NCBI RefSeq assembly: GCF_002163715.1
Contig: NZ_CP015698.1
Coordinates: 1,054,001-1,118,000, forward strand
Origin: Curvibacter sp. AEP1-3
GTDB lineage: Bacteria > Pseudomonadota > Gammaproteobacteria > Burkholderiales > Burkholderiaceae_C
DNA length: 64,000 nt
Direction: 5' to 3'
The position numbers and the translations under genes are program-made. The notes beneath the pieces are model-generated. The model saw nothing but the letters and a program-made list of their open reading frames with translations. It did no database searches and was not told the DNA's origin. Below are positions 3,421-60,651 of this stretch, in pieces (the stretch's first letter is position 1; every line of letters starts with the position of its first letter).

Positions 3421-3470
3421 TAGCGCCCCAGCCCACATGCGATGTGCGCGGGGCGCTATTTTTTTGATAG
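3421..3470 (-). repeat. Dispersed palindromic repeat copy 1, acting as rpoD terminator
   Basis: A 9-bp stem (TAGCGCCCC pairing with GGGGCGCTA), with an inner CACAT-GCG-ATGTG hairpin, is followed by seven T residues, so it should stop rpoD transcription. Read on the minus strand it has the layout of the dispersed repeat: CTAT, an A-rich stretch, ATAGCGCC, CGCGCA and finally GGGGCGCTA. At 50 bases it is slightly longer than the other copies because of the inner hairpin. It lies between the rpoD stop codon and aroE. Confidence 0.85.
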
Positions 3471-3503
3471 TACCGATTTCACTTCCCGTTTATCCGACCT
3501 GTT

Positions 3504-4346
3504 ATGGCTAACGATCAACCGTACCGGCTTGCCGGTGTCATGGGCTGGCCTGTGGCCCACTCCCGCTCACCCGTCATTCACAACCACTGGATCGCCGAAC
3601 ACGGCCTGCGCGGTGCCTACGTGCTCTTGCCTGTACAACCCGAGAAGCTGGAGCAGGCCTTGCGCGCGCTACCTGTGCTGGGCATTGCCGGATGCAACCT
3701 CACTATCCCCCACAAAGTGGACGCGATGAACATCGTCGACCACGTGGATACTTTGGGGCAGCGCATCGGAGCGGTAAACACCATCGTGGTGAACGCGGAC
3801 TGCAGCTTGAGCGGGCGTAACACCGACGCGTTTGGCTTTATCCAGAGTCTGTACGAGGCCGGCAGCAGTTGGAAGCCGGCTGATGGGCCCGCTTGCGTGG
3901 TGGGCGCCGGTGGTGCTGCACGCGCCGTGATCGTCGGCTTGCTGGATGAGGGTGTGCCGGACATTCGCCTGACCAACCGCAGCGACCACAAAGCGGTGGA
4001 CATGGCACAAGAGTTCGGCCCCCGCGTGAAAGCGGTACCGTGGTCTGAACGACACGATGCTTTGGCCGGTACAGCCCTGTTGGTGAACACCACCAACCAG
4101 GGCATGCATGGTCAACCGGCGCTGGACCTGCGTTTGGACGCTTTGCCCGTGTCTGCGCTCGTGTCAGACATTGTGTATGTGCCGCTGGAGACCCCGCTGC
4201 TGGCAGCCGCTGCTGCAAGAGGTAACCCCACGGTGAATGGCTTGGGGATGCTTTTGCACCAGGCACGCCCAGCCTTTGAGGCTTGGTTCGGCCAGTTGCC
4301 CTCGGTGAGCCCTGCGCTGCTGCAAAAAGTGCTGGCGACTTTCTAG
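3504..4346 (+). CDS. aroE: Shikimate dehydrogenase (NADP+)
   Basis: Reduces 3-dehydroshikimate to shikimate with NADPH in the shikimate pathway to aromatic amino acids. The N-terminal substrate domain carries the VAHSRSP motif (about residues 17-23), the NLTIPHK catalytic-lysine motif (about 66-72), GAVNTI and GRNTDAFGF. The Rossmann cofactor domain starts with VVGAGGAARAV (near 132). NTTNQGM near 195 corresponds to the usual NATPLGM motif. At 280 aa the length is typical. It follows rpoD after a terminator, so it probably has its own promoter, although none is clear. The start ATG lies about 30 bases after the repeat. The paralogue ydiB/quinate dehydrogenase is a less likely alternative. Confidence 0.95.
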   Translation: MANDQPYRLAGVMGWPVAHSRSPVIHNHWIAEHGLRGAYVLLPVQPEKLEQALRALPVLGIAGCNLTIPHKVDAMNIVDHVDTLGQRIGAVNTIVVNADCSLSGRNTDAFGFIQSLYEAGSSWKPADGPACVVGAGGAARAVIVGLLDEGVPDIRLTNRSDHKAVDMAQEFGPRVKAVPWSERHDALAGTALLVNTTNQGMHGQPALDLRLDALPVSALVSDIVYVPLETPLLAAAAARGNPTVNGLGMLLHQARPAFEAWFGQLPSVSPALLQKVLATF

Positions 4347-4380
4347 GATGAAGGCAAGGCGCCAGCCTTGCCCGCGGGAT

Positions 4381-4668
4381 TTACGCCTCGGGTGCCGTCT
4401 TGGCGCTGCGCTCGCCCACGAAGCGAAACGCAAAAGAAAGCACTTCTTCGAGGGACAGCTCGATCGCCTGGCGCTCCTGCTCGGTCAGGTAGAACATCAT
4501 GTCCACATCGTGACGGACATAGCGGGCCGGTAGTCGGTTCAAGGCAACACAAGACACGTCGGCCAGCATGTCATTGGTGAACTCCGGGTACTGGGCTGCA
4601 CGCTGCACCACCTCTTCAAACACCAGCCGCTCGTAGTAGTTGTGAACCTGTTCAAAGTTGAAAGTCAT
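4381..4668 (-). CDS. ComFB-family protein (possible c-di-GMP receptor)
   Basis: Small 95 aa protein matching the late-competence ComFB family: an N-terminal NYYERLVFEEV helix, a central ALNRLPARYV segment (family ALNxLPPRYV) and a C-terminal SFAFRFVGERS helix. The zinc-type cysteines of Bacillus ComFB are absent, with one Cys only. The start is set at the ATG encoding MTFNFEQ because GGAGG sits 10 bases upstream; an upstream in-frame ATG would add ten residues but has no such site. Members in cyanobacteria have been reported to bind cyclic di-GMP; applying that here is inference. It converges on aroE and diverges from the HxlR gene. comEC is far away, so no competence operon is implied. Confidence 0.75.
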   Translation of the reverse strand: MTFNFEQVHNYYERLVFEEVVQRAAQYPEFTNDMLADVSCVALNRLPARYVRHDVDMMFYLTEQERQAIELSLEEVLSFAFRFVGERSAKTAPEA

Positions 4669-4821
4669 GGTGCGGCTGCCTCCGGAAAAGTCGATCACGC
4701 GATGCTAACCGGCAACCATAGCACCCGAGTCGCTGAGTGACAAGTACAGACACGACATAAACGCCACTTCGGCAATTTGTAGGGGTGACGCCCTGTTTAC
4801 ATGCGTTAACAGCTATGAAAC

Positions 4822-4850
4822 TTGTAGCAGCTGAAAAACTGCGCTATAGT
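4822..4850 (+). promoter_or_regulatory. Sigma-70 promoter for the HxlR-type regulator gene
   Basis: TTGTAG and TATAGT are separated by 17 bases, a good sigma-70 match. Transcription would begin near 4857, giving a leader of about 70 bases before the ATG at 4929. This supports the short start of the downstream gene over the longer open frame, whose first codons lie upstream of the promoter. Confidence 0.65.
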
Positions 4851-4928
4851 TTCTCCTCGATTTCGATTTGGTGGCCCGACGCCGCCGAACCGCCGGAACC
4901 AAAAGTACCAACAACAAAGGGCAAGGTA

Positions 4929-5240: not shown

Positions 5241-5276
5241 ACCCCGCCCGGCCGCATCGCGGCCTGTGCACCACAG

Positions 5277-5301
5277 GACAGGCTATGCCTGTCTTTTTTT
5301 T
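5277..5301 (+). terminator. Rho-independent terminator of the HxlR-type gene
   Basis: GACAGGC-TAT-GCCTGTC forms a 7-bp stem with a 3-base loop, followed by eight T residues. It lies about 35 bases after the stop codon and separates this gene from the FKBP gene. Confidence 0.85.
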
Positions 5302-5335
5302 GCGTGGGGCATAATTTAGGGTTTTTCCGGCCGCC

Positions 5336-5377
5336 GGCGCCCATCGCGCATGCGCGGCCAGCTCCTGTTTTTATAGC
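5336..5377 (-). repeat. Dispersed palindromic repeat copy 2
   Basis: On the minus strand it reads GCTATAAAAA, GGAGCTGGC, CGCGCATGCGCG and ATGGGCGCC. It lies in the leader of the FKBP gene and ends 14 bases before the start codon, immediately upstream of the ribosome-binding site. Confidence 0.75.
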
Positions 5378-5391
5378 AAAAGGATGTGACT

Positions 5392-14069: not shown

Positions 14070-14112
14070 ACTATCAAAAAAATAGCGCCTCGCGCATGTA
14101 GCGCGGGCGCCA
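14070..14112 (+). repeat. Dispersed palindromic repeat copy 3
   Basis: ACTATC, seven A residues, TAGCGCC, TCGCGCATGTAGC and GCGGGCGCC in order. It lies between the convergent DUF1631 and nitronate monooxygenase genes. GCTATTTTTTTGATAG on the minus strand could terminate the latter. Confidence 0.85.
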
Positions 14113-14132
14113 ATGGACTAAATGCTTAAAAA

Positions 14133-15098
14133 TCAGGCGTAATTGCGCGCCAGCAGTTCGGCCTTGGCAGCGGCGTACTCCCGCTTGAGCTGGGCCACAA
14201 ACTCGCCTGCAGGTTGAATTTTGTCGACGGCGCCAATGCCCTGCCCGCAGCCCCAGATGTCTTTCCACGCTTTGGCCGATGCGCCACCAAAGTTCATCTT
14301 GCTCGGGTCGCTCTCCGGCAGATTGGCAGGGTCCAGGCCCGCCGCGCGGATGCTGGGCGCCAGGTAGTTGCCGTGCACACCGGTGAAGAGGTTGCTATAC
14401 ACAATCTCATCCGAGTTGTTGTCCACGATGGCCTGCTTGTATTCCTGCGCAGCGCGGGCTTCTTCGGTCGCAATAAAGGCCGAGCCGATGTAAGCGAAGT
14501 CTGCCCCCATGGCTTGCGCCGCCAGCACCGAGGCACCCGTGGCAATGGAGCCGGACAAGGCCAATGGGCCATCGAACCACTGGCGGATTTCCTGCACCAG
14601 GGCAAACGGGCTCTTCACACCCGCATGACCACCCGCACCTGCGGCCACGGCGATCAGGCCGTCCGCGCCTTTTTCAATGGCTTTGTGCGCGTGCTTGTTG
14701 TTGATGATGTCATGCAACACCACACCGCCGTAGGAGTGAGCTGCGGCATTGATGTCTTCGCGCGCGCCCAGCGAGGTGATGATGATCGGCACCTTGTACT
14801 TCACGCACAGAGCCATGTCGTGCTCCAGACGGTCGTTGCTCTTGTGCACGATCTGGTTGATGGCAAAAGGCGCGGCGGGCCTGTCCGGATGGGCCGCGTT
14901 GTGGGCCGCCAACGCCTCGGTGAACTCTTTCAGCCAGTCCTCCAGCAACTCGGCCGGACGCGCATTGAGTGCCGGCATGGAGCCCACTACACCCGCAATG
15001 CATTGGGCAATCACCAGCTTCGGGTTGCTGATGATGAACAAGGGAGAGCCGATCACCGGAAATGGCAGCTTATCCAGCGGTGCAGGCAGTTTGGACAT
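14133..15098 (-). CDS. Nitronate monooxygenase (FMN-dependent)
   Basis: TIM-barrel flavoprotein of the nitronate monooxygenase / 2-nitropropane dioxygenase family, which oxidises alkyl nitronates such as propionate-3-nitronate. Motifs in order: VIGSPLFIISNP (about 15-26), FAINQIVHKSN, PIIITSLGA, the flavin-phosphate loop AVAAGAGGHAG (about 150-160) and LSGSIATGASVLAAQAMGADFAYIGSAF (about 185-212, a second FMN-binding stretch). At 321 aa it is like class I enzymes, which have a His in the GGHAG loop as seen here. A strong GAGGAG ribosome-binding site supports the start. It stands alone between two repeat copies. Substrate is unproven; some family members act as enoyl reductases. Confidence 0.88.
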   Translation of the reverse strand: MSKLPAPLDKLPFPVIGSPLFIISNPKLVIAQCIAGVVGSMPALNARPAELLEDWLKEFTEALAAHNAAHPDRPAAPFAINQIVHKSNDRLEHDMALCVKYKVPIIITSLGAREDINAAAHSYGGVVLHDIINNKHAHKAIEKGADGLIAVAAGAGGHAGVKSPFALVQEIRQWFDGPLALSGSIATGASVLAAQAMGADFAYIGSAFIATEEARAAQEYKQAIVDNNSDEIVYSNLFTGVHGNYLAPSIRAAGLDPANLPESDPSKMNFGGASAKAWKDIWGCGQGIGAVDKIQPAGEFVAQLKREYAAAKAELLARNYA

Positions 15099-15136
15099 GG
15101 GGTCTCCTCGGGTACTATTTATGTGAGAAATTGACT

Positions 15137-15181
15137 GGTAGCGCCCGCTGCATATGCGCGGGCAGCTACCAAATCTATAGC
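15137..15181 (-). repeat. Dispersed palindromic repeat copy 4
   Basis: On the minus strand it reads GCTATAGATTTGGTAGCTGC, CCGCGCATATGCA and GCGGGCGCTACC. It lies between the acyl-CoA dehydrogenase stop codon and the nitronate monooxygenase start, in the leader of the latter. Confidence 0.9.
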
Positions 15182-22225: not shown

Positions 22226-23292
22226 TGGCCCCCCCACTAAGCGCCCTTGGCGCCTCCCCCCCAGGGGGGCGCACCCGGTGGACCGGTGGAGCCGGATCCA
22301 CGGGTGCTCTGACTTGGAATCCGTTCACCCTTGTGCGGTGGCGCTTTCAAGCCTGGTGGCAAGCGCGCTTGCCACTCAAGGACAGCACCACCCTCACCCA
22401 GCGCAATGTGTACATCCTGCCCACGCGGCCGGGTTTTATGCTGGGGCTCACGCTGCTGGTGCTGCTGGTGGCCAGCATCAACTACCAGCTCAATCTGGGT
22501 TATCTGCTGACCTTCATGCTGACCGGGGCTGCCATCATTGGCGTACATGTGTGCCACGGGACGCTCAGTGGCCTCACTATGCATTTGATAGCGCCTGACG
22601 CACATTTCGCGGGCGCCAGCGTGCCATTGGGCATACAACTCAACAACCCGTCCAAACGCAACCGTTACGGCATCGGCCTGGCTGTTCTGGGCAGCGGACA
22701 CTGGAGCTGGACCGACGTGGGCCCGCAAGGCAGCGCCAAGGTGCAGATCAGCTTTCCCGCCACGGTGCGTGGGCTGCAGCCCCTGCCGGCCCTGACCGCA
22801 GAAACCCGCTTTCCGCTAGGGACCTTCCGGGTCTGGACCGTGTGGCGCCCGGCCTCCAAGGTGCTGGTATACCCCGCGCCGGAATTGAATCCACCCCCCT
22901 TACCACCGGGTGAGCCGCGCAGCGGCGGCACCCAAACCGCCCAGCGCCACACCACCGGCGAGTTCGATGGTGTACGTGCCTACCGCCGGGGCGACCCGCT
23001 CAAACTCGTGGTCTGGAAGAAGGCCGCCAAGAGCGACGAACTGGTCAGCCGCGATGCCCAACAAGCCCAGCGACTGGAGCTGTGGCTGGACTTGGGCGCT
23101 GTGGAAAACCAGCTCCGCAGCCGCGCTGCCAGTGGCGTGCGAGAGCTGGCCCTCTCTCGCCTGTGTGCCTGGGTGCTGCAAGCCGAAACCCGTGGCCTGC
23201 GCTACGGTTTGCGTTTGGGCTGGCACGAGTTGGCGCCCGATAGCGGACCGGCCCACCAAAAGAACTGCTTGCAAGCCCTGGCGCTGGCCTGA
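22225..23292 (+). CDS. DUF58-domain membrane protein
   Basis: A 355 aa protein whose ATG overlaps the moxR stop (TGATG). After about 60 residues, two adjacent membrane segments appear (FMLGLTLLVLLVASINY, LGYLLTFMLTGAAIIGVHV, about 72-110). The C-terminal half holds the DUF58 core: EFDGVRAYRRGDPLKLVVWKKAAKSDELVSRD (about 248-279), in which RxYRxGDxxxxIxWKxxA is the family signature. DUF58 proteins look like von Willebrand-factor A relatives and pair with MoxR ATPases. Codons for LIAPDAHFAGAS near 122-134 coincide with an in-frame copy of the dispersed repeat. Function beyond the operon link is not known. Confidence 0.88.
   Translation: MAPPLSALGASPPGGRTRWTGGAGSTGALTWNPFTLVRWRFQAWWQARLPLKDSTTLTQRNVYILPTRPGFMLGLTLLVLLVASINYQLNLGYLLTFMLTGAAIIGVHVCHGTLSGLTMHLIAPDAHFAGASVPLGIQLNNPSKRNRYGIGLAVLGSGHWSWTDVGPQGSAKVQISFPATVRGLQPLPALTAETRFPLGTFRVWTVWRPASKVLVYPAPELNPPPLPPGEPRSGGTQTAQRHTTGEFDGVRAYRRGDPLKLVVWKKAAKSDELVSRDAQQAQRLELWLDLGAVENQLRSRAASGVRELALSRLCAWVLQAETRGLRYGLRLGWHELAPDSGPAHQKNCLQALALA
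22576..22619 (+). repeat. Dispersed palindromic repeat copy 5, inside the DUF58 gene
   Basis: ACTATGCATTTGATAGC, GCCTGACGCACATTTC and GCGGGCGCCAG in order, fully within the reading frame, where it encodes TMHLIAPDAHFAGAS. Confidence 0.75.
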
Positions 23293-26860: not shown

Positions 26861-27964
26861 GTGTCCCTGAAAAAAACTCTGTTTACTCTCGTTTTGATAG
26901 CAGCTTGCGCAAATTCCATGGGCGCTACCGGCAAAAAACACGCTAAATCCAAAGCCGTAACCAAGGCCTCAGCGGCAGCTACCGAAGGGACACCCTACGG
27001 CGACCGGGAAGACGTCATGCGCATGGCAGACGACATCGCCCAGCGCCGCAACTTGGACCCCGCCTGGGTCCGTGCCACCTTGTCGAAGGCCCGTATGGTT
27101 CCTTCCGTGGTGCGGGCGATCACGCCACCTGCGGTAGGCACCCCTAAAAACTGGGCCCTTTACCGCAGCCGTTTCGTGGAGCCCATCCGCATCAGGGCAG
27201 GGGTTAAATTCTGGCTCGCCAACCAAGAAACGCTGGCCCGCGCCGAAGCCCAGACCGGTGTACCGGCCAGCATCATCGTCGGCATCATCGGTGTCGAGAC
27301 CATTTACGGCCAGCAACTCGGCAACTACCGCGTCATTGACGCATTGACCACCCTGAGTTTTGATTTTCCGGACGCGCACCCGCGTAAGGCTGCACGGGCT
27401 GCCTACTTTTTGACCGAACTCGAGGCCTACCTCAGCCTCACCCAACGCACTGGCACCGACCCCATGGCCCTGCGCGGCAGCTACGCCGGCGCCATGGGCT
27501 GGCCACAGTTCATGCCCTCGAGTTGGGCCAAGTACGGTATCGACTTTGACGCGGACAGCCGGGTAGACCTGTTCCACAGCCAGGCCGATGTAATCGGCTC
27601 AGTGGCCAATTACTTCCAGGCATTCAAGTGGCAACGGGGCATGCCCACCCACTACCCGGTGCAGTTCGACATGGCACGCCTGGACCAGGCGGCCTTGATG
27701 GCCCCGGACATCGTGCCGACCTTCAGCCCCCCCACCATGCAGGACAAAGGTGTGGTGCTGGATGCCGCAGGCCAGGCGCACGCCGGCTTGCTGGCCCTGA
27801 TCGAGCTGCAAAACGGAGCCGAGCCCCCGACCTATGTGGCAGGCACCGAGAACTTTTACGTCATTACCCGCTACAACTGGAGCAGCTACTACGCCATGGC
27901 GGTCATTGATCTCGGACAGGCCGTGGCCCAAGCAGTACAAGCCCAGACAGGCATGCCAAAATAA
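26861..27964 (+). CDS. mltB: Membrane-bound lytic murein transglycosylase B-like lipoprotein
   Basis: Cleaves the MurNAc-GlcNAc bond of peptidoglycan with 1,6-anhydro products. From a GTG start the first 15 residues (VSLKKTLFTLVLIAA) precede Cys16; LIAAC is a good lipobox, so this is probably an outer-membrane lipoprotein. The family core follows: KFWLANQETLARAEAQTGVP, the catalytic-Glu motif IVGIIGVETIYGQQLG (Glu near 145), LRGSYAGAMGWPQFMPSSW and the C-terminal NFYVITRYNWSSYYAMAV, which is diagnostic for MltB. The frame stays open 48 codons upstream, but those codons lack protein-like character. The lipobox is encoded by a copy of the dispersed repeat. A SPOR-domain gene starts three bases downstream. 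Confidence 0.92.
   Translation: MSLKKTLFTLVLIAACANSMGATGKKHAKSKAVTKASAAATEGTPYGDREDVMRMADDIAQRRNLDPAWVRATLSKARMVPSVVRAITPPAVGTPKNWALYRSRFVEPIRIRAGVKFWLANQETLARAEAQTGVPASIIVGIIGVETIYGQQLGNYRVIDALTTLSFDFPDAHPRKAARAAYFLTELEAYLSLTQRTGTDPMALRGSYAGAMGWPQFMPSSWAKYGIDFDADSRVDLFHSQADVIGSVANYFQAFKWQRGMPTHYPVQFDMARLDQAALMAPDIVPTFSPPTMQDKGVVLDAAGQAHAGLLALIELQNGAEPPTYVAGTENFYVITRYNWSSYYAMAVIDLGQAVAQAVQAQTGMPK
26885..26927 (+). repeat. Dispersed palindromic repeat copy 6, encoding the MltB lipobox
   Basis: ACTCTCGTTTTGATAGC, AGCTTGCGCAAATTCC and ATGGGCGCTA in order. Within the frame it encodes TLVLIAACANSMGAT, that is, the hydrophobic core end, the lipobox LIAAC and the first mature residues. Confidence 0.75.
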
Positions 27965-32910: not shown

Positions 32911-35415
32911 CTATGGCACATCATGAGCCCAATAATGCCGCTCGTCTTCCCGCATACACGCCACATTTTGGGGCTCTGCAGAGCGCCAGCGAGCCGCACC
33001 ACAACGGGGCGACAACACCAAATGGGTGCTCAGAGCCGCATAGCGCTCCAGCACCGGCGCGGCCGGGTGGCCGTAGCGGTTGCGATAGCCCGCCTGCACC
33101 AGCGCATGGCGTGGCTGCACCGCCTGCAGGAACTCGGGCGTGCTTGATGTTTTGCTGCCGTGGTGCGGCACCAACAGCACATCGGCTCGCAGCTTGGAAG
33201 CCGTGTGCGGGTCGCCCAACATCTGGAGCTCCTGGGGTGCCTCAATGTCTCCGGTGAGCAAGGCCGTCTGCCTGCCGTTGCTGATGCGCAGCACGCAGGA
33301 CAAGGCATTGGATTTGGGCGGCGGTTGCTGCTCATACGCACCGGCCGGCGGCTGCAGCACCTCGAAGTCCACCCCATCCCACACCCAGCGTTGGCCCGCT
33401 TCACAACGGCTGGACTGGCGCAGTTGCTGCAAGGCATGCTGCGGGTCGATGGAGCTCAGCAGGGCGGCTTGCGGCTGCATCATCAGCACGGCGGCAGCGC
33501 CACCCACATGGTCGGTATCGCGGTGGCTGAGCACCACGGTATCCAGCTGCACATCCAGCGCCTTGAGCAAGGGCAGCAGCACGCGATTACCCGCATCACT
33601 CTCCAGGCTGTAGCGCGGGCCGGCATCGAACAGCAAGGCATGCCTGGCTGTTTGCACCAAGACCGCGTTGCCCTGCCCGATATCCGCCGCCAACAGCGAA
33701 AACTCGCCCTCCGCCGGCAGCGGCGGCCGCCAGAGTAGGCAAGCCAGCACCGGCATCACCCCCATAGCCCGCACTGCCCAAGGCAGGGGCAACACCAGCA
33801 GCACGCCGCCCGCCACCGCCCAGATACCCAATGCGAGGGGCGGCAGGGGAAGATTGAGCGTGGCCCACGGCAAGGCGGCCAATCCATCGAGCGCCGCATA
33901 CAGCAGCGCTACGGCTCCGGTGGCCGCTGTCCACACCTCCGACCACAACACGCCGGCCAGGGACAAAGGAGTGATCACCAACGTGACCCAGGGAATGGCA
34001 AATGCATTCGCCACCAGACCCACCAAGGACACCTGTCCGAACCACAGCAAGACCAACGGCGCCAGCGCGAGGGTGATCACCCACTGCTCGCGCCACATTC
34101 CGCAAACGGAGTGCAGAAATTGGGCCCACGCCCTCTGCGGGGCTGCTATTCCGGATTCGTGGCCATTTTGACCTCTGGCGCCCGTGGAATCTGCGCGAGC
34201 AGCTCCTGAATTCGTAGCAACAGAGCTGACGAACAAGATGCCTACCGCCACAAAACTCAACCAGAAACCGGCCTGCAACATAGCCCAAGGGTCCCACATC
34301 AGCACCACCACCGCCGTCCACAGCGCAACCCACGGCCACGGCCAGCGCACGCCCAATACACGCAGGAAAACCACCATGGCCAGCATCAGACACGTGCGCT
34401 GCGCCGGCACACCCCAGCCCGAAATCAGCGCGTAGGCACTTGCGAGGGCCACGCCCAGCAGCCAACCGGCATGGGCTGCAGGCAAGCGGTTACACAGCCA
34501 AGTCGAGCGCCGCCACCAACGGCCTGCCAGCAGGGTAGCCGCCCACGCAAACATGGTGATGTGCATGCCCGAAATGCTGACCAAGTGCGACACCCCGGTC
34601 GCCCGGAACACATCCCAGTCATTGCGATCTATGGCCCGCTGGTCGCCCACCACCAGCGCTGCCAGCAATCCGGCAGAGCGGGCATCGGCCACATGGGTGA
34701 GGATGCGCTCCCGCGTCCATTGGCGGGCCAGTGCGACCGGCGCCTGCCAAGTCTGCCCCAGCAACTGCGGCACCGGCGCGCTGGCAGTGGCGCGCACATA
34801 ACCTGTAGCCTGCACGCCCTGCTCCCACAAATAAAGCTCGTAGTCAAACCCATGGGGGTTGGCGCTACCATGCGGCGCTTTCAAGCGAAGTTGCATGCGC
34901 CAGCGCTGGCCGGCCCGCACGTCCACCGGCGGGCGCTGCAGCTCCGGAAGCTGGGCTTGCGCGTTGTAGGCACTGGTGTACCAGCCCAGATCCAACAAAG
35001 CCGGAAGGCGCACGATCTGCCCGTCCAATGTCGCCTCCTCAGGCGCGAAGCGGAAGCGCACCCCCGCCTCGGTGGTCTGCGGCATGTCAGCCACCACCCC
35101 GGTCACCCACACATCGCGCCCTTCGAGCGCCGGATTCAGGGCTTGGCTCACAAACACCACCGCCCGCACACCGGTGAGGCCCCAGGCAAACGCAAGCCCA
35201 GCGATCAGCACTAGGCATTGCACCCTTATGTTTGCTATTTTTTTGGTAGCTACCCGCGCATAGAGTACGGGCGCTAGCAGTACAAATGCGGCATAAACCC
35301 ACCATGCTGCCAATGCGGCCTGCTGCAGCTGCAAAGCGATGCCGGCCAACAGGCCCGCACCAAGCGCGAGGCCGGTGCGGGACCCTCCAGCCAGTCGGGG
35401 TGCCGCTGCATACAT
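32911..35415 (-). CDS. comEC: ComEC/Rec2 competence DNA channel protein
   Basis: Inner-membrane channel for single-stranded DNA uptake in natural transformation (834 aa). N-terminal hydrophobic segments and a DUF4131-like OB region (RGQ-type KAPHGSANPHGFDYELYLW near 205-225) come first. The Competence domain follows with the typical VSHLVSISGMHITMFAW (near 280) and SGWGVPAQRTCLMLAMVV. The C-terminal metallo-beta-lactamase-like domain has GQGNAVLVQTARHALLFDAG and VVLSHRDTDHVGGAAAVL (HxDxDH) plus LLVPHHGSKTSSTPEFL, so its metal ligands look intact. A dispersed repeat lies in frame near residues 46-61. It precedes the ATP-grasp and alpha-E genes on the same strand; no other transformation gene is adjacent. 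Confidence 0.93.
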   Translation of the reverse strand: MYAAAPRLAGGSRTGLALGAGLLAGIALQLQQAALAAWWVYAAFVLLAPVLYARVATKKIANIRVQCLVLIAGLAFAWGLTGVRAVVFVSQALNPALEGRDVWVTGVVADMPQTTEAGVRFRFAPEEATLDGQIVRLPALLDLGWYTSAYNAQAQLPELQRPPVDVRAGQRWRMQLRLKAPHGSANPHGFDYELYLWEQGVQATGYVRATASAPVPQLLGQTWQAPVALARQWTRERILTHVADARSAGLLAALVVGDQRAIDRNDWDVFRATGVSHLVSISGMHITMFAWAATLLAGRWWRRSTWLCNRLPAAHAGWLLGVALASAYALISGWGVPAQRTCLMLAMVVFLRVLGVRWPWPWVALWTAVVVLMWDPWAMLQAGFWLSFVAVGILFVSSVATNSGAARADSTGARGQNGHESGIAAPQRAWAQFLHSVCGMWREQWVITLALAPLVLLWFGQVSLVGLVANAFAIPWVTLVITPLSLAGVLWSEVWTAATGAVALLYAALDGLAALPWATLNLPLPPLALGIWAVAGGVLLVLPLPWAVRAMGVMPVLACLLWRPPLPAEGEFSLLAADIGQGNAVLVQTARHALLFDAGPRYSLESDAGNRVLLPLLKALDVQLDTVVLSHRDTDHVGGAAAVLMMQPQAALLSSIDPQHALQQLRQSSRCEAGQRWVWDGVDFEVLQPPAGAYEQQPPPKSNALSCVLRISNGRQTALLTGDIEAPQELQMLGDPHTASKLRADVLLVPHHGSKTSSTPEFLQAVQPRHALVQAGYRNRYGHPAAPVLERYAALSTHLVLSPRCGAARWRSAEPQNVACMREDERHYWAHDVP
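35234..35277 (+). repeat. Dispersed palindromic repeat copy 7, inside comEC
   Basis: GCTATTTTTTTGGTAGCTAC, CCGCGCATAGAGTA and CGGGCGCTAG in order: an excellent match to intergenic copies. comEC runs on the opposite strand and reads it as LAPVLYARVATKKIA near its N-terminus, inside a hydrophobic region. Confidence 0.9.
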
Positions 35416-42225: not shown

Positions 42226-44847
42226 GTGACACAAGCCGACGAATCCCCCCCTGACCGCCCGGAAGAAGCTGCCGCAGATGTGCTGCGCTACGCGCGCGCC
42301 TGCGCTGCAGCCAGCGGCCACTTTGACGAGTTGCGGGGCGCTATCAATTCCGAAGCTGCCGACGCATATCTGACGGGCGTTTGGCGCCAATTTTTTAACA
42401 ACATGGAAGGCGGCAGCGAAGCGGCCCTCGAACAGCATGTTGCCAGCCTCCAGCGACAAATCCGTGACAACGGCGTCACCTACAACGTGTATGCCGATGC
42501 GGAAGGGCCGCAGCGCCCCTGGTCGCTGGACCTGTTCCCGCTGATTGTGGACGCCCCAGATTGGGCCCACATCGAAGCGGGCGTGCAGCAGCGCATGCGC
42601 TTGCTGGACGCCGTCATGGCGGATGTTTACGGTCCCCAGGATCTGTTGCGCCGCGGCCTGCTTCCGCCTGCCTTGGTGCAGGGTCACCCCGGCTACCTGC
42701 GCCCCATGGCGGGCGTGCAACCGGTGGGGGGCGTACACCTGCATGTGGCCGCCTTTGACCTGGCCCGTGGGCCGGATGGCAACTGGTGGGTGGTCGGCCA
42801 GCGCTGCCAGGCACCCAGCGGCTTGGGCTACCTGCTGGAAAACCGGCTGGCGGTGTCCCGGCAGTTTCCACAAGCATTTCAGGCTCTCAAGGTGCAGCGC
42901 CTGGCCAGTACCTACCGGGCGCTGATGGACAGCCTCAAAACAGCCAGCCCGGCCGGTGCCCAGGCGCACATTGCCCTGCTCACGCCCGGCCCGTACAACG
43001 AAACCTATTTCGAGCACGCTTACCTCGCGCGCTACCTCGGCCTCACGCTGGTAGAGGGCAGCGACCTCATCGTGCGTGATGAGCGCCTGTTCCTTAAGAC
43101 CCTGCGAGGCCTGGTGCCGGTACACGGGCTGCTCAAGCGGGTGGATGACCAGTACCTGGACCCGCTGGAGCTGCGGCCGGACTCCACGCTGGGCGTGCCC
43201 GGCTTGTTGCAAGCCATCCGCGCCGGCAACGTGCTGGTGGCCAACACTCCGGGTTCGGCGTTTCTGGAGTCGCCCGCTTTACTGGGCTTTCTGCCGGCCA
43301 TTGCCCAGGCTTTGCTGGGCGAAAGTTTGAGTCTGCCGGCCCTGCCGACCTGGTGGTGCGGTGAGCGCAGTGCCATGGAAGCAGCGCTGCCGCTGCTCGG
43401 CGAGCGCACTATCAAACCCACCTATCCCGGCTCCAGCATCCACCCCAGCTTTGAGGCGGTGCTGGGCCACACCATGCAACAAAGCGCCCTGGACCGCTTG
43501 GCCGGACGCATCGTGCGTCAGAGTGAAGAGCACACGGTGCAAGCCTATATGCCCCTGTCGCAAATGCCCACGTGGCGCAGCGATGCGGACGGCAAGGGCA
43601 ACGCTGCCATGGAAGCCCGCTCCGTCATGTTGCGGGTGTTCGCCGTATCCGACGGGCGTGACGCTGCCGGACAACCTAAGTGGCAGGTGCTCCCCGGCGG
43701 CCTGGCACGCGTAGCAGGTGCCAGCGCGGACATCGCCTCCATGCAGCGCGGCGGCAGCAGCGCTGACGTCTGGGCCCTCACCCGTGGCGAAGTGGACACC
43801 ACCACCCTGCTGCCCACCACACTGACACCGGCCGTGCTGGCCCAACGCAAACGCTTGGTCACCAGCCGTGCCGCAGAAAACCTTTACTGGCTGGGCCGCT
43901 ACACCGAGCGCGCTGACAACACCATCCGACTGGCCCGCTTGGCGCTGGAGTACCTGGGCGGTGAAGAACAGTCCAGCGCGCCTTTGCTGCAGTGGCTCAC
44001 GCAGCTGGCCCAGATCAACACCCTGGTGCTCCCCGGCGTGCCATCCGCTGTGCAGGCGCGACGGGTCTTCGAGCGCTCCATCATCGCCAGCCTGGCTTCG
44101 CCTGACGGGGCCACCAGCGTGGGCTACAACATGCGGGCCCTGAAGATGGCAGCCGCTACCGTGCGCGAGCGCCTGTCACAAGAACACTGGAGCACCATCG
44201 TCCGGGCAGAAGAAGAGATGTTCCAGCGCTGTGCCCAGTTGGCCGCCCAGGGTGACTACGCGCCCAACCAGGCTCTGCGCATCCTCAAAGACGCCAGTGA
44301 CCACCTGGCCGCGATTACCGGTGCCCAAACCGATCGCATGACCCGCGACGATGGCTGGCGCCTGCTCAGCATTGGCCGCCACGTAGAGCGGCTGAACTTT
44401 TTGGCTACTGCGCTGGACCAGTCCTTTGACACGGGCGCAGTGGACACCGATGGCGGATTTGAAGCCTTGCTGGGCCTGTTCGACAGCACCATTACCTTCC
44501 ACGCCCAGTACCAGCAAAGCCGCGATGTCGCTGCGCTAATAGACCTGCTGGTGCTGGACCGCGACAACCCCCGCTCCCTGGCTTGGGTAGCACACACCCT
44601 GCGCGGTCGCCTGGCGAAACTGGCCCTGAGCCCGGCCAACGAGCTAAGCCCCATGAGCCTGCAAGTGCCTGCCCCCGACAGCTGGGATCTGGCTGCCCTG
44701 TGCGAAAGCCCTGCCGGCGAGCCGGTGATGCAGCCGCTGCGCAGCCTGCTCGCGTCGCTGTGCACTGCGGCGTACACGGTGTCCGAAGACATCAGCACCA
44801 CCTATTTCACCCACTCCGGGGAAACCAAGCAAAGCGTAGGCACCTGA
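42226..44847 (+). CDS. Fused circularly permuted ATP-grasp / alpha-E protein
   Basis: An 873 aa cytoplasmic protein. Residues ~20-490 are a circularly permuted ATP-grasp (YNVYADAEGPQRPWSLDLFPLI; QRCQAPSGLGYLLENRLAVS, in place of EDNxRxPSG; STLGVPGLLQAIRAGNV; RTIKPTYPGSSIHPSF). Residues ~545-860 are an alpha-E domain (SRAAENLYWLGRYTERADNTIRL near 546-568; LLSIGRHVERLNFLATALDQSFD). The Gly-rich phosphate loop of the split paralogue (GAGGYGMLVG) is not conserved here. The start is uncertain; GTG (VTQADESPPD) fits family length, while the frame stays open 36 codons upstream. The repeat lies in frame near residues 38-52. The stop codon overlaps the next gene's ATG, so it is coupled to a transglutaminase. 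Confidence 0.88.
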   Translation: MTQADESPPDRPEEAAADVLRYARACAAASGHFDELRGAINSEAADAYLTGVWRQFFNNMEGGSEAALEQHVASLQRQIRDNGVTYNVYADAEGPQRPWSLDLFPLIVDAPDWAHIEAGVQQRMRLLDAVMADVYGPQDLLRRGLLPPALVQGHPGYLRPMAGVQPVGGVHLHVAAFDLARGPDGNWWVVGQRCQAPSGLGYLLENRLAVSRQFPQAFQALKVQRLASTYRALMDSLKTASPAGAQAHIALLTPGPYNETYFEHAYLARYLGLTLVEGSDLIVRDERLFLKTLRGLVPVHGLLKRVDDQYLDPLELRPDSTLGVPGLLQAIRAGNVLVANTPGSAFLESPALLGFLPAIAQALLGESLSLPALPTWWCGERSAMEAALPLLGERTIKPTYPGSSIHPSFEAVLGHTMQQSALDRLAGRIVRQSEEHTVQAYMPLSQMPTWRSDADGKGNAAMEARSVMLRVFAVSDGRDAAGQPKWQVLPGGLARVAGASADIASMQRGGSSADVWALTRGEVDTTTLLPTTLTPAVLAQRKRLVTSRAAENLYWLGRYTERADNTIRLARLALEYLGGEEQSSAPLLQWLTQLAQINTLVLPGVPSAVQARRVFERSIIASLASPDGATSVGYNMRALKMAAATVRERLSQEHWSTIVRAEEEMFQRCAQLAAQGDYAPNQALRILKDASDHLAAITGAQTDRMTRDDGWRLLSIGRHVERLNFLATALDQSFDTGAVDTDGGFEALLGLFDSTITFHAQYQQSRDVAALIDLLVLDRDNPRSLAWVAHTLRGRLAKLALSPANELSPMSLQVPAPDSWDLAALCESPAGEPVMQPLRSLLASLCTAAYTVSEDISTTYFTHSGETKQSVGT
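42340..42383 (+). repeat. Dispersed palindromic repeat copy 8, inside the fused ATP-grasp gene
   Basis: GCTATCAATTCCGAAGCTGC, CGACGCATATCTGA and CGGGCGTTTG in order. The frame reads GAINSEAADAYLTGVW. It lies near the N-terminus of the protein. Confidence 0.7.
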
Positions 44848-45862: not shown

Positions 45863-45906
45863 GCTATTATTTTCATAGCTACTTGCGCACATTCCATGCG
45901 CGCCAG
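45863..45906 (+). repeat. Dispersed palindromic repeat copy 9
   Basis: GCTATTATTTTCATAGCTAC, TTGCGCACATTCCA and TGCGCGCCAG in order. It lies between the transglutaminase stop and ridA, just ahead of the ridA ribosome-binding region. Confidence 0.88.
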
Positions 45907-45943
45907 CAGCACTTTTCATCTATAAACTTTTGAGATAAACGCC

Positions 45944-50265: not shown

Positions 50266-50952
50266 TCAGGAGAAGAGCTCGAGTATGCGCCATCCACGCT
50301 GCTCGGCCAGTGTGCGCAAGCGCGGGTCTGGGTTGGTGGCGACCGCCACATCGGCTTTTTCCATGAGAGGGACGTCGTTGATGGAGTCTGAATAAAAGGT
50401 GGTGTGCACCGTCTCCCAGCTCCAGCCCCGGTCCGTCAGCCACTGGTTCACCCGGGTGACTTTGCCCTCGCGGAACGAGGGTACGCCGGCAATCTCGCCG
50501 GTGTACCAGCCGGTGCCGCCGGGGGCTTCGTCCTTCACCAGATCCACAGCTATCAGGTCTTCCACGCCGAATGCAGTGGCAATCGGGCGGGTCACAAAGG
50601 CGTTGGTTGCGGTCACGATGATGACTGTGTCGCCCGCAGCCTGGTGGTCCTTCACCAACTTCAGGGCTTGGGGTTGAATGGCTTTTTGGATGATGGCGCT
50701 CATGAAATCTGCGTGAGCAGATATCGATTTAGTAGCGCCCTCACGGATGACTGCTGCAGTAGCAAACCGGATGTACGCGTGGATATCGAGCGTGCCTGCT
50801 TTGTAGTGTTCGTAGAACTCCTGGTTCTTCTGCTTGAAGAGTTCGGCATCGGTCCAACCCAGCGCGGTGGTGAACTCGCCCCAGGCGTAGTCGGAGTCCA
50901 GCGGGATCAGGGTGTGATCCAGGTCGAACAGGGCAATCTTTTTGACGGTCAT
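50266..50952 (-). CDS. HAD-IB family phosphatase (SerB-like)
   Basis: A 228 aa hydrolase of the haloacid dehalogenase superfamily, subfamily IB. Motif I is ALFDLDHTLIPLDSDYAWG (about 7-25; nucleophile Asp10 and acid/base Asp12). Motif II is VIIVTATNAFVTRPIA (about 112-127) and motif III-IV is TTFYSDSINDVPLMEKADVAVATNPD (about 183-208). Family members include phosphoserine phosphatases and lysophospholipid or nucleotide phosphatases; the true substrate is unknown. Its ATG overlaps the hda stop codon (ATGA), and pcnB follows, a gene order conserved across Burkholderiales. A dispersed repeat lies in frame near residues 73-87, between the nucleophile and motif II. Confidence 0.9.
   Translation of the reverse strand: MTVKKIALFDLDHTLIPLDSDYAWGEFTTALGWTDAELFKQKNQEFYEHYKAGTLDIHAYIRFATAAVIREGATKSISAHADFMSAIIQKAIQPQALKLVKDHQAAGDTVIIVTATNAFVTRPIATAFGVEDLIAVDLVKDEAPGGTGWYTGEIAGVPSFREGKVTRVNQWLTDRGWSWETVHTTFYSDSINDVPLMEKADVAVATNPDPRLRTLAEQRGWRILELFS
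50693..50736 (-). repeat. Dispersed palindromic repeat copy 10, inside the HAD phosphatase gene
   Basis: On the minus strand GCTACTAAATCGATATC, TGCTCACGCAGATTTC and ATGAGCGCCAT in order. The gene reads it as GATKSISAHADFMSA. Confidence 0.65.
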
Positions 50953-53906: not shown

Positions 53907-53950
53907 GCTAGTAAATTTATAGCTGCTCGCGCACAGCAGCTGTGGACTTT
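53907..53950 (+). repeat. Dispersed palindromic repeat copy 11
   Basis: GCTAGTAAATTTATAGCTGC and TCGCGCACAGCAGC match the family; the final GGGCGC part is degraded to TTTTGGGC. It lies in the gap between purM and the ParA-like gene. Confidence 0.7.
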
Positions 53951-54001
53951 TGGGCTTTTTAGGCTCAAACTGGAGGCATCGTTGGCTCCGGGGTAGTGTG
54001 T

Positions 54002-58222: not shown

Positions 58223-58401
58223 CAGTACGTGCGAAATTTCGGGGTGCACGCTGCACCGTAAAAAGCCGGTGCTGCGCCGCACAAGAATTCTACCCGCTCC
58301 GCTGTCATGGAGATGACAAACCAGCTATGCGAGTGCGCATCAGTGTGATGTGGATTTGTCACGAAACCGCCATGCCCAGTGCGCCTAAAATCAGGCTTCA
58401 A

Positions 58402-58433
58402 CGGCCCGACTGGCCTTTGCAGCAGTCGGGCCG
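58402..58433 (+). other. 11-bp hairpin in the argD leader
   Basis: CGGCCCGACTG pairs perfectly with CAGTCGGGCCG around a 10-base loop; ATCTGTTTTG follows. It lies 32 bases before the argD ATG. If a TAAAAT at 58386-58391 is a -10 box, the hairpin would form at the very 5' end of the mRNA. It could stabilise the message, or act as a weak terminator/attenuator. Confidence 0.5.
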
Positions 58434-58465
58434 ATCTGTTTTGTAGCCAACCCCGGAGTTATGAC

Positions 58466-59683
58466 ATGACCGCCGCCACCGTTACCACGCCGTCTTCACC
58501 CCACGTGATGAACACCTACGGCCGATTGCCCATCGCCCTGAGCCATGGACAAGGCTGCCGCGTGTGGGACGTGAACGGCAAGGAATACCTGGACGCCCTG
58601 GGCGGCATCGCAGTCAACACCCTGGGCCACAACCACCCCCAGCTCGTGCCCGCGCTGCAAGACCAGCTCACCAAGCTGATCCACACCTCCAACTACTACC
58701 ACATCCCCCTGCAGGAAGAGCTGGCCAAACTGCTGGTGGAACGCTCCGGCATGAGCAATGTGTTTTTCTGCTCCACCGGCCTGGAAGCCAACGAAGCCGC
58801 CCTGAAGCTGGCCCGCAAGTTCGGCCACGACAAGGGCATAGCCCGCCCCGAGGTCGTGGTGTTCGAAAAAGCGTTCCACGGCCGCTCCATCGCCACGCTC
58901 AGCGCCACCGGCAACCCCAAAGTGCAAGCCGGTTTCGGCCCGCTGGTGGAAGGCTTTATCCGCGTGCCGGTGAACAACATTGACGCACTCAAAGCAGCGA
59001 CCGAAGGCAACCCGAATGTCGTGGCCGTGTTTTTTGAAGCCATCCAGGGCGAAGGCGGCGTGAACCCCATGCACATGGACTACTTGCGCGATGTGCGTGC
59101 CCTGTGCGACCAGCGCGACTGGCTGTTGATGATTGACGAAGTGCAGTGCGGCATGGGCCGCACCGGCAAGTGGTTTGCCCACCAGTGGGCGGGCATTCAG
59201 CCCGACGTGATGCCCTTGGCCAAGGGCCTGGGCTCCGGCGTGCCGGTGGGCGCTGTGGTGGTGGGCCCCAAAGCCGCCACCATCTTCCAACCCGGCAACC
59301 ACGGCTCCACCTTCGGCGGCAACCCGCTGTCCATGCGCGCCGGGGTCGAAACCATCCGCATCATGGAAGCGGAAGGTCTGCTGGCCAATGCCGAGAAGGT
59401 GGGCGCCCACCTGAAAGCTGGGCTGGAAGCCGCTCTCAAAGCCGAGATAGCCAACGGCGGGGTGAAAGAAGTGCGCGGCCAGGGCCTGATGATGGGCGTG
59501 GACCTGACCAAGCCCTGCGGCGCCCTGGTGCAACGGGCTGCCGATGCAGGTTTGCTGATCAGCGTGACGGCTGACAGCGTGGTCCGCCTGGTGCCCCCCC
59601 TGATTTTGAGCGTGGCCGAGGCCGACGAGATCGTCGCCATCCTCGCGCCCCTGATTGCTGCCTTTTTGAAAGAAACCGCATGA
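58466..59683 (+). CDS. argD: Acetylornithine aminotransferase
   Basis: PLP enzyme converting N-acetylglutamate semialdehyde to N-acetylornithine in arginine synthesis. The 405 aa protein is a class III aminotransferase: PIALSHGQGCRVWDVNGKEYLDALGGIAVNTLGH (parts, about 21-54), FFCSTGLEANEAALKLARKF (about 98-117), EAIQGEGGVNPM (about 193-204), DEVQCGMGRTGKWFAHQW and the PLP-lysine segment LAKGLGSGVPVGA (Lys near 253). STFGGNPL follows. The ATG with GGAG eight bases upstream is preferred; an out-of-frame ATGACATGA overlaps it. argF starts within its stop codon, which supports the arginine role over succinylornithine or GABA transaminases. Confidence 0.92.
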   Translation: MTAATVTTPSSPHVMNTYGRLPIALSHGQGCRVWDVNGKEYLDALGGIAVNTLGHNHPQLVPALQDQLTKLIHTSNYYHIPLQEELAKLLVERSGMSNVFFCSTGLEANEAALKLARKFGHDKGIARPEVVVFEKAFHGRSIATLSATGNPKVQAGFGPLVEGFIRVPVNNIDALKAATEGNPNVVAVFFEAIQGEGGVNPMHMDYLRDVRALCDQRDWLLMIDEVQCGMGRTGKWFAHQWAGIQPDVMPLAKGLGSGVPVGAVVVGPKAATIFQPGNHGSTFGGNPLSMRAGVETIRIMEAEGLLANAEKVGAHLKAGLEAALKAEIANGGVKEVRGQGLMMGVDLTKPCGALVQRAADAGLLISVTADSVVRLVPPLILSVAEADEIVAILAPLIAAFLKETA

Positions 59684-60651
59684 GCCTCTCCAGCAACGCC
59701 GTCCCCAGCACCCTGCCCCAAGGCGCGCCGCCAGTGCGGCACTACCTGCAGTTCGACGACTTCAGCGCCGACGAATACGCCTACCTGCTGGAGCGCGCGG
59801 CCTTCATCAAGCGCAAGTTCAAGACCTTTGAGCGCCACCACACCCTCGTCGACCGCACGCTGGCCATGATCTTCGAGAAGGCTTCCACCCGAACCCGCGT
59901 AAGCTTTGAGGCCGGCATGTACCAATTGGGCGGCAGCGTGGTGCACCTGACCACCGGCGACAGCCAGCTCGGCCGCTCCGAGCCGATTGAGGACAGCGCC
60001 AAGGTCATCAGCCGCATGACGGACATCGTGATGATCCGCACCTACGAGCAAACCAAGCTGCAAGCTTTTGCCGCCAACTCGCGGGTGCCCGTCATCAACG
60101 GCCTGACCAACGAATTCCACCCCTGCCAGATCCTGGCGGACATCTTCACCTACATCGAGCACCGCGGCCCTATCCAGGGCAAGACTGTGACCTGGGTGGG
60201 TGACGGCAACAACATGGCCAACACCTGGCTGCAGGCTGCTGCCAAGCTGGGCTTCCACTTGCGCGTATCCACACCCAGCGGCTACGAAGTCAATGAGAAA
60301 TTGGCCGCCAGCGCCGGCGGAATGGGCGCGGGCAGCTATAAAACCTATAGCAATCCGATGGAAGCCTGCCAGGACGCCGACCTGATCACCACCGATGTGT
60401 GGACCAGCATGGGCTTCGAGGCCGAAAACGAAGTCCGCCGTAAGGCCTTTGCCGCCTGGTGCGTGGACCGCAAGATGATGGCGGTGGCCGCGCCCAACGC
60501 CATCTTCATGCACTGCTTGCCCGCCCACCGTGGCGAAGAGGTGGAAGCCGAAGTCATCGACGGCCCGCAAAGCGTGGTCTGGGACGAAGCCGAAAACCGC
60601 ATGCACGTGCAGAAGGCGCTCATGGAGTACCTGCTGCTGGGCCAGCTCTAA
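59680..60651 (+). CDS. argF: Ornithine carbamoyltransferase
   Basis: Makes citrulline from ornithine and carbamoyl phosphate. The 323 aa protein has the carbamoyl-phosphate loop EKASTRTRVSFEAGM (about 66-80, STRTR), the hinge NGLTNEFHPCQILADI (about 140-155, HPxQxxxD), WVGDGNNMANTWLQAA and the ornithine-binding Cys motif MHCLPAHRGEEV (about 277-288). All active-site elements are in place. It overlaps argD by the ATGA sequence, so the two are co-translated. A minus-oriented copy of the dispersed repeat lies in frame near residues 210-224, replacing part of the loop before WTSMG. The anaerobic or catabolic enzyme is a less likely reading given the argD neighbour. Confidence 0.96.
   Translation: MSLSSNAVPSTLPQGAPPVRHYLQFDDFSADEYAYLLERAAFIKRKFKTFERHHTLVDRTLAMIFEKASTRTRVSFEAGMYQLGGSVVHLTTGDSQLGRSEPIEDSAKVISRMTDIVMIRTYEQTKLQAFAANSRVPVINGLTNEFHPCQILADIFTYIEHRGPIQGKTVTWVGDGNNMANTWLQAAAKLGFHLRVSTPSGYEVNEKLAASAGGMGAGSYKTYSNPMEACQDADLITTDVWTSMGFEAENEVRRKAFAAWCVDRKMMAVAAPNAIFMHCLPAHRGEEVEAEVIDGPQSVVWDEAENRMHVQKALMEYLLLGQL
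60308..60351 (-). repeat. Dispersed palindromic repeat copy 12, inside argF
   Basis: On the minus strand GCTATAGGTTTTATAGCTGC, CCGCGCCCATTCCG and CCGGCGCTGG in order. argF reads it on the plus strand as ASAGGMGAGSYKTYS. Confidence 0.75.

What the first reader, a model, noticed from the sequence alone, without database searches (positions are those of the whole stretch)
3421..60351. Twelve copies of one 43-44 bp palindromic repeat, half of them inside genes
Aligning intergenic and intragenic segments by eye gives one layout: GCTAT, 7-8 AT-rich bases, ATAGCTGC, two bases, GCGCA, about nine bases, then GGGCGCTAG. Clear copies start at 3421, 5336, 14070, 15137, 22576, 26885, 35234, 42340, 45863, 50693, 53907 and 60308, with a doubtful one at 11182. 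That is about one per 5 kb, in both orientations. The layout holds two nested inverted repeats, so each copy can fold. Similar sequences are, to my recollection, common in Rhodoferax and relatives, but I know of no mechanism for their spread.
Basis: seen in the sequence. Interest (0 to 1): 0.72.

Follow-up and report, generated by a model that had tools for sequence, protein, structure and literature searches.

The report
Genome-wide 65-base DNA recognition motif
Hundreds of copies of one 65-base DNA motif lie across this water bacterium's genome, and the copies inside genes that could be checked look as if they arose in place through the choice of DNA letters rather than by jumping in, which points to an unknown protein that reads them, perhaps in DNA uptake.

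Summary
The 43-bp core belongs to a ~65-bp motif: a 17-bp dyad (GCTAY-N7-RTAGC), a GC-rich dyad (TGCTCGCGC-N11-GCGCYAG) and a T-rich tail. The window holds 13 copies; 187 lie in 1.45 sampled Mb, implying over 500 per genome; reversed DNA gives none. A mobile reading is not supported: 33-38 of 36-42 mappable copies sit at the same site in relatives 85-94% identical, and none of 15 intragenic copies compared with homologues (of 83) shows a 22-residue insert. Codon choice makes the motif: redrawing synonymous codons in all genes leaves 2-7 sites instead of 83, and motif-core codons are conserved beyond neighbouring codons. No tested stem covaries. One relative (G009) shares a homogeneous dialect of the second dyad at 6 of 7 shared sites. 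The REP-type transposase gene does not track the motif. Against this, some sites without the motif are 35-87 bases shorter, and in another genus a third of comparable sites lack it. Best explanation: a DNA-recognition motif evolving in place, kept by selection or molecular drive; an uptake-sequence-like role is my committed, unproven mechanism. Ten paper searches found no description of it.

The parts
3406..3471 (-). motif copy, 49.1 bits, intergenic after rpoD; on the + strand a GC-rich inverted repeat followed by T7
   Evidence: shared with two relatives
5312..5377 (-). motif copy, 52.0 bits, intergenic
14070..14135 (+). motif copy, 52.1 bits, overlaps the 3' end of the gene 14133-15098 (-) by 3 bases; missing in relative G001 with surrounding bases
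15116..15181 (-). motif copy, 67.0 bits, intergenic; missing in G001, present with its own dialect in G009
22576..22641 (+). motif copy, 48.0 bits, inside gene 22333-23292 (+), same strand; G009 has a same-length protein stretch without the motif
26885..26950 (+). motif copy, 61.7 bits, at the start of mltB; would encode LVLIAACANSMGA if an upstream start is used
35234..35299 (+). motif copy, 55.6 bits, inside comEC, opposite strand
42340..42405 (+). motif copy, 43.1 bits, inside a circularly permuted ATP-grasp gene; native LTxxWxxFF is kept within the motif
45863..45928 (+). motif copy, 70.1 bits, intergenic; no motif at this site in G018, where the spacer is shorter
50671..50736 (-). motif copy, 53.8 bits, inside a HAD-family gene; ungapped over the motif against 3fvv
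53907..53972 (+). motif copy, 35.0 bits, intergenic
60286..60351 (-). motif copy, 53.0 bits, inside an ornithine carbamoyltransferase gene, opposite strand; 3-residue indel against 4f2g
4763..4828 (-). marginal copy, 17.2 bits

Best explanation
The repeat is not an active mobile element but a composite DNA-recognition motif of about 65 bp that arises and is maintained in place. Its modules are a 17-bp dyad made of two independently drawn half-sites (RTAGC or CAGGAGC) around an AT-rich centre, a GC-rich dyad and a T-rich tail, at fixed spacing. A protein or complex reads it as double-stranded DNA in either orientation. Shown here: abundance, specificity, lack of a whole-element insert in the 15 intragenic copies compared, constraint on synonymous sites, conserved sites among close relatives, genome-specific dialects. 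Inferred: that a protein binds it. Committed but unproven: that it works like the DNA uptake sequences of Neisseriaceae and Pasteurellaceae, so that biased uptake and recombination of kin DNA keeps copies near consensus, and a change in receptor specificity drags all sites to a new dialect.
For: 187 copies in 1.45 Mb against 0 in reversed DNA; in genes 83 against 0 (codon order shuffled) and 2, 6, 7 (same proteins, synonymous codons redrawn). Length in G000 minus solved homologue over the motif: OTC +3, HAD 0, ManC-like +2, MutL -2, ABC +1, YbiB -4. In 15 comparisons of 10 intragenic copies with homologues lacking the motif, six differ by at most 1 residue and none by the -20 to -24 an insert predicts. 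Each of 83 intragenic copies exceeds its own synonymous redraws by z 3.0 or more (copies were chosen by score, so one search is the fairer control). Where the residue is unchanged, the codon is identical in 96.1% of motif-core against 83.5% of flank codons (G007, 24 copies, p 7e-7) and 88.4% against 63.0% (G001, 22 copies, p 5e-11). Same sites in relatives. CTCCCGCACTA in 15 of 17 G009 copies and 6 of its 7 copies orthologous to G000 ones, 0 of 120 orthologues in six other genomes, 0 of 189 in G000. Half-sites independent (Fisher p 0.53), no tested stem covaries. Depleted inside genes, enriched between genes and at gene ends; one preferred frame per orientation, as reported for uptake sequences (PMC2346458, abstract).
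Against: No protein, binding or uptake was tested. 65 positions and 55.5 bits are far more than the 10-12 bp of known uptake sequences (recalled), and 1.29 per 10 kb is far sparser. Scores are bimodal: 17 sites between 0 and 25 bits (reversed 3), the mass at 30-75, which slow stepwise origin would not predict. Copies are not depleted in DNA without a G007 counterpart (8 copies not flanked by aligned DNA on both sides, 22.7 kb unaligned, against 41 in 238 kb; the 8 include edge cases), unlike uptake sequences (PMC2397512, passage). Length does change at some motif-free sites: intergenic 45863 is 74 bases shorter in G074 and 35 in G018; a G001 copy has no counterpart in G000 and G007, which are 87 bases shorter there; parB of another genus differs by 42 bases; ComEC linkers by 9-10 residues. 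In that other genus 25 of 77 comparisons with both flanks mapped lack the motif. Concerted change is clear only in G009; in the other six genomes orthologues exceed paralogues of that genome.
Confidence: 0.45

Rival explanations
1. The motif is a binding site for a chromosome-structure, replication or repair protein, maintained by selection at each site rather than by uptake.
For: Present in all sampled 0.4-Mb bins at 0.58-1.75 per 10 kb, both orientations, DNA-level constraint inside genes, two dyads at fixed spacing.
Against: No clear ori/ter or strand pattern; G018 and G074 appear to lack the family, so it is dispensable; selection on over 500 sites at once must be explained.
Confidence: 0.25
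2. An old palindromic mobile element (like Rickettsia palindromic elements, REP or MITE) that spread in the family ancestor, no longer moves, and decays slowly.
For: Discrete score class; linker copies encode the element's own peptide, as in comEC; frame bias; motif-free sites shorter by 35, 42, 74 and 87 bases; 25 of 77 comparisons lack it in another genus; possible decayed same-length copies.
Against: No precise insertion or target duplication found; conserved proteins keep native residues and nearly native length; of nine usable printed motif-free alignments in the other genus four keep length within one base; synonymous constraint; transposase gene does not track it.
Confidence: 0.23
3. 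An RNA element or bidirectional transcription terminator that works as a hairpin.
For: The copy after rpoD is a GC-rich inverted repeat followed by T7; four of six copies folded have z of -2.3 or lower; enrichment at gene ends.
Against: No covariation at any tested stem pair in 187 copies; 43 of 83 intragenic copies lie on the strand opposite to the gene; no Rfam family at gathering score in the window.
Confidence: 0.05

Closest known systems
DNA uptake sequences of Neisseriaceae (DUS) and Pasteurellaceae (USS)
   Same: Abundant, dispersed, overlies coding sequence, frame-biased, more conserved than surroundings at orthologous sites, species dialects, absent from some members of the group (PMC3630211 and PMC2397512, passages; PMC2346458, abstract).
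   Different: About 65 bp with two dyads instead of 10-12 bp (recalled); much sparser; not depleted in strain-specific DNA; uptake untested.
Rickettsia palindromic elements (RPE)
   Same: Palindromic, many copies inside genes in frame (PMC10969869, passages).
   Different: RPE are in-frame insertions of ~150 bp; here the compared genes lack a matching insert and conserved ones keep native residues.
REP/BIME with REP-associated tyrosine transposases (RAYT), GTAG-tagged palindromes
   Same: GC-rich dyad preceded by RTAG or GGAG; a Y1-type transposase gene exists in the genome; intragenic copies are known for REPs too (PMC3733652, passages).
   Different: No flanking association, no co-distribution, no insertion seen; Comamonadaceae genera searched for were not found in the main text of PMC2817692 or (Rhodoferax, Polaromonas, Acidovorax, Variovorax) PMC3733652.
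BRE, Betaproteobacterial repeat element (PMC3110155)
   Same: Reported in Rhodoferax, Polaromonas, Acidovorax, Delftia; some copies within genes.
   Different: About 90 bp full length, 69% GC in Bordetella, some in tandem; copies here are 51% GC and the nearest two in the sample start 432 bp apart. BRE letters are in a figure, so sequence identity was not tested.

Membership tests
DNA uptake sequence (DUS/USS) | motif raises DNA uptake and transformation | not testable with these tools
   needs a competent strain
DNA uptake sequence (DUS/USS) | overlies genes without whole-motif insertion | tested here: met
   15 of 83 intragenic copies compared:
DNA uptake sequence (DUS/USS) | strongly conserved at orthologous sites at DNA level | tested here: met
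   left arms 98.9% vs flanks 92.9% (G007), 93.0% vs 79.8% (G001); codons. Loop and tail are no better conserved than flanks
DNA uptake sequence (DUS/USS) | species dialects | tested here: met
   clear concerted change only in G009
DNA uptake sequence (DUS/USS) | short (10-12 bp) motif, about one per kb (recalled) | tested here: not met
   66 positions, 55.5 bits, 1.29 per 10 kb
DNA uptake sequence (DUS/USS) | depleted in recently acquired DNA | tested here: not met
   8 copies for 22.7 kb unaligned vs 41 for 238 kb aligned to G007; age of that DNA unknown
REP/RAYT | copies flank the transposase gene | tested here: not met
   of 30 Y1_Tnp loci of about 2-3.4 kb (L001, L097-L125), 5 held a match above 14 bits; two of these are a degenerate copy just after the G000 and G007 genes
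REP/RAYT | transposase distribution follows the repeat | tested here: not met
   gene at E 1e-20 in 96 of 103 genomes, motif pattern in 45 of 103
Rickettsia palindromic element / MITE | insertion relative to homologues, target duplication | tested here: inconclusive
   no precise insert or duplication, but motif-free sites shorter by 35-87 bases at four places
Rickettsia palindromic element / MITE | present inside genes in one frame | tested here: met
   same strand phase 0 33 of 40; opposite strand phase 2 36 of 43
BRE | ~90 bp, high GC, tandem copies | tested here: not met
   sequence identity to BRE itself not tested

The most novel reading that the evidence does not exclude
A third, independent uptake-signal-like system: a composite 65-bp signal in Comamonadaceae, read by an unknown complex, whose dialect can be rewritten genome-wide in place (seen in G009), making DNA exchange self-selective among freshwater betaproteobacteria.
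Probability: 0.28. Interest if true: 0.87.

Novelty: new variant of a known kind. Interest (0 to 1): 0.7.

Why it matters
A 55-bit motif kept at probably more than 500 sites, even within MutL, PutA and ornithine carbamoyltransferase, by synonymous codon choice means that a strong genome-wide force acts on DNA in a common freshwater group. The known patterns nearest to this are uptake sequences and chromosome-organising sites. The motif makes its reader findable by pull-down and the uptake idea directly testable, and it warns against reading such repeats as mobile palindromes. Genus members differ widely: by one dialect-bound pattern 45 of 103 have matches; that pattern misses some carriers, such as G023, which has nine model matches.

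Tried and rejected
Flip-flop of the left 17-bp module: five exact reverse-complement pairs of modules suggested hairpin inversion as in parvovirus ends (recalled); rejected because left and right half-site types are independent and no orthologous pair printed shows the exchange.

Excision and re-insertion of the central dyad at a fixed left module: rejected, since solitary left modules looked mostly like reverse complements of full copies (judged by eye from 40 listed of 172).

RAYT mobilisation. Terminator or RNA fold. Strand bias by replichore: no clear pattern, not tested formally. Concerted evolution as a general rule: only G009 meets the paralogue-over-orthologue test for positions 18-48 (0.69 against 0.53, 7 pairs); in G003 and G013 the orthologue value (0.62, 0.60) is above that genome's paralogues (0.56, 0.45) but just below those of G000 (0.64, 0.62). 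In G001 there are recurrent same-direction changes: position 39 C to G in 11 of 33 pairs, position 42 C to T in 11 of 33. A right-half matrix that drifted to the reverse complement was discarded. In one search lower-case flanks of minus-strand copies were reversed without complementing, so those printed alignments were not used.

Dropped or filtered: one search left out hits near locus ends; searches use only copies whose relative also scored above 18 (38 of 42 mapped for G007, 33 of 36 for G001; 17 and 23 of 59 could not be mapped); one 'absent' copy (26885 in G007) was a mapping miss and is shared. 'Orthologous' rests on one or both flanks within 130 bp; the seventh G009 pair looks doubtful. 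In one search only alignments with a gap under 150 were printed, and one of ten was a mis-mapping. Two solved-structure searches had no hit. On rechecking I lowered the best explanation from 0.50 to 0.45, the novel case from 0.30 to 0.28, and raised the relic rival from 0.20 to 0.23, because of the shorter motif-free sites and the absences.
Full report
WHAT IS THERE. The window is bases 1,054,001-1,118,000 of a 4.38-Mb genome. Its genus includes Comamonadaceae bacterium OS-4 (relative G001: contig length 3,763,024 equals AP026970.1); carriers of the exact core named include Rhodoferax bucti and Rhodoferax sp. TS-BS-61-7. A covariance model of 15 window copies gave 150 matches in the genome, all E 1.9e-7 or better, from 2583 first-look candidates, of which the tool scored only 150. 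A 66-position weight matrix found 187 copies above 18 bits in 1,448,001 sampled bases, 13 of them in the window. Controls: reversed DNA 0; codon-order-shuffled genes 0 in three runs; same proteins with redrawn synonymous codons 2, 6 and 7 against 83 real; 68.5 kb of two genus members without the family 0.

ANATOMY. Aligned copies are conserved from position 0 to about 65, with random flanks. Consensus: GCTATnaAtTtagTAGC TGCTCGCGCAnAttccaCGgGCGCtAGnGgC cnaTTTgactcnnAAncn, 55.5 bits in all: 20.5, 26.9 and 8.1 in the three parts (the matrix is ungapped, so copies with shifted spacing would be missed). The left part is a dyad with two half-site types, RTAGC and CAGGAGC: 24 of 31 GGAGC right arms follow CA, 8 of 15 GCTCC left arms precede TG. 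The halves are independent (2 of 187 with both, Fisher p 0.53), which explains why whole modules occur in both orientations. None of the stem pairs tested covaries in 187 copies, although several vary. Dyads read by protein fit better than a fold.

CONTEXT. With a gene finder written here (90% coding in the 316-kb contig), 83 of 187 copies lie inside genes, 37 over 3' ends, 17 over 5' ends, 50 between genes. Random placement gives 78.9, 4.2, 4.8 and 12.2%. Inside genes one frame per orientation dominates: 33 of 40 on the coding strand (peptide like A-I-K-S-I-A-A-R-A-D-S-T-G-A) and 36 of 43 on the other. Frame openness alone predicts less bias: in 50 intergenic copies those frames are open in 30 and 27, while frames open in 16 and 20 are used 2 and 5 times.

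NOT A WHOLE-ELEMENT INSERTION. Fifteen of the 83 intragenic copies could be compared. Against solved homologues, G000 differs over the motif by +3 residues in OTC (4f2g), 0 in a HAD protein (3fvv), +2 in a mannose-1-phosphate guanylyltransferase-like protein (2x5s), -2 in MutL (7p8v), +1 in an ABC transporter (9nfi) and -4 in YbiB (7y3p). Against relatives lacking the motif at the site, 15 comparisons of 10 copies give (relative minus G000) -10, -9, -8, -1, -1, 0, 0, 0, +1, +4, +4, +4, +11, +11, +41; an insert predicts about -22. The -1 cases include PutA (named). In MutL the protein around the motif is nearly identical in G074, which scores -11 against 36.7 here. Redrawing synonymous codons drops the mean intragenic score from 51.1 to -2.6 bits, z 3.0 or more in each of 83. 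Where the residue is unchanged the codon is identical in 96.1% of motif-core against 83.5% of flank codons for G007 (24 copies) and 88.4% against 63.0% for G001 (22 copies). Core positions were chosen by me from the consensus; loop and tail are not better conserved than flanks.

LENGTH CHANGES THAT SPEAK AGAINST. At the intergenic site 45863 the flanks lie 74 bases closer in G074 and 35 in G018 than here. A G001 copy (its position 211085) has no counterpart in G000 or G007, which are 87 bases shorter there. In another genus of the family, 25 of 77 comparisons with both flanks mapped lack the motif; of nine usable printed alignments four keep length within one base, the others are shorter by 3, 3, 8, 42 and 42. 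The 42-base cases are a parB gene. So gain or loss with length change does occur, without a precise edge or duplication seen.

HISTORY. G007 is 94% and G001 85% identical over most of a 19.9-kb part of the window. In syntenic stretches of 268-316 kb, 59 G000 copies gave 42 mapped in G007: 38 with an orthologous copy, two same-length sites below threshold, one mapping miss that is shared, one in a variable region. In G001 36 mapped: 33 orthologous, one same-length, two lost with surrounding bases on both sides of one gene; G009 carries copies at both. In six of seven genomes compared, positions 18-48 are more alike between orthologues (0.60-0.89) than among that genome's own copies (0.45-0.61); in G009 it is 0.53 against 0.69. 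CTCCCGCACTA occurs in 15 of 17 G009 copies, 6 of 7 orthologous ones, 0 of 189 in G000 and 0 of 120 orthologues in six other genomes. At the comEC site the left dyad reads GCTAC...AGGAGC in eight genomes, to which protein constraint may contribute. G018 and G074 show no copies in 68.5 kb and no pattern match; their ComEC linker shares little beyond ATD and G.

DISTRIBUTION. RTAGCTGCTYGCGCN11GSGCYAGMGGC with up to one mismatch occurs in 71 of 299 genomes and 37 of 126 genera of the family, most in G131 (157 matches), with one match to the reversed control pattern in all. A left-dyad pattern ending in CTC occurs in 45 of 103 genus members, with six control matches in all; it misses other dialects, for example G023, which has nine model matches. 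Sixteen genomes of other families had no model match.

MECHANISM. In-place origin, codon-level constraint, frame bias, gene-end enrichment, orthologous conservation, dialects and absence in some relatives together resemble what is described for uptake sequences: dialects and genomes without them (PMC3630211, passages), 97% identity at orthologous sites and appearance by recombination (PMC2397512, passages), frame bias and, in Pasteurellaceae, bias to gene termini (PMC2346458, abstract). I commit to an uptake-like drive as the likeliest single mechanism, a little under one in three; that it is a non-mobile protein-recognition motif of some kind I hold at about seven in ten. Against the uptake reading stand length, density, bimodal scores and the lack of depletion in unaligned DNA. 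A chromosome-organising site is the main rival.

LITERATURE. Ten searches, some aimed at related families, listed no paper that describes this motif; the search for core letters listed one unrelated paper. BRE (PMC3110155: abstract, passages and one section read) is the nearest named repeat in these genera, but its letters are in a figure. PMC2817692, PMC3733652 and PMC10969869 were seen as passages. Only openly licensed papers are held, so absence from print is not shown.

Noticed in passing
L001:1414-2109 (G000 C1:3624736-3625428): A RAYT-like Y1 transposase of 231 aa, found in 96 of 103 genus members, mostly as one copy: looks domesticated. A degenerate motif copy follows its stop in both G000 and G007.
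   Followed up: partly
window 3398-3421; contig positions 68890, 70522, 106363, 107474 (window position scale): Breaks of synteny with G007 fall at motif copies more than expected: 4 of 44 alignment ends within 12 bp of a copy end, 0.39 expected by shifting (1 of 2000 shifts as high); for G001 3 of 75 against 0.71 (63 of 2000). One copy ends exactly where alignment to both relatives ends. Alignment extension may bias this; it could mean recombination at the motif.
   Followed up: partly
window 3406-3480: The copy after rpoD reads on the + strand as a GC-rich inverted repeat followed by T7, a plausible terminator.
   Followed up: no
window 26885; L077:18393; L069:9179; L080:17372: Several copies sit at gene starts where they encode signal-peptide-like stretches (IAACA, LIAARA).
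   Followed up: no
L048:8974 and L048:18148: Two copies are preceded by the same bases (CAGTCTCACGACTGCGGGGCTTT), a second short repeat or terminator.
   Followed up: no
L229 about 3303 (G248), L230 (G239), L231 (G338): parB differs by 42 bases between genomes with and without the motif: a candidate for a real length change.
   Followed up: partly
G000 C1:1160298 and C1:1161443: Two copies 1.1 kb apart share the same near-perfect left dyad GCTCCTGATTCAGGAGC; the second lies in DNA without a counterpart in the G007 and G001 stretches.
   Followed up: no
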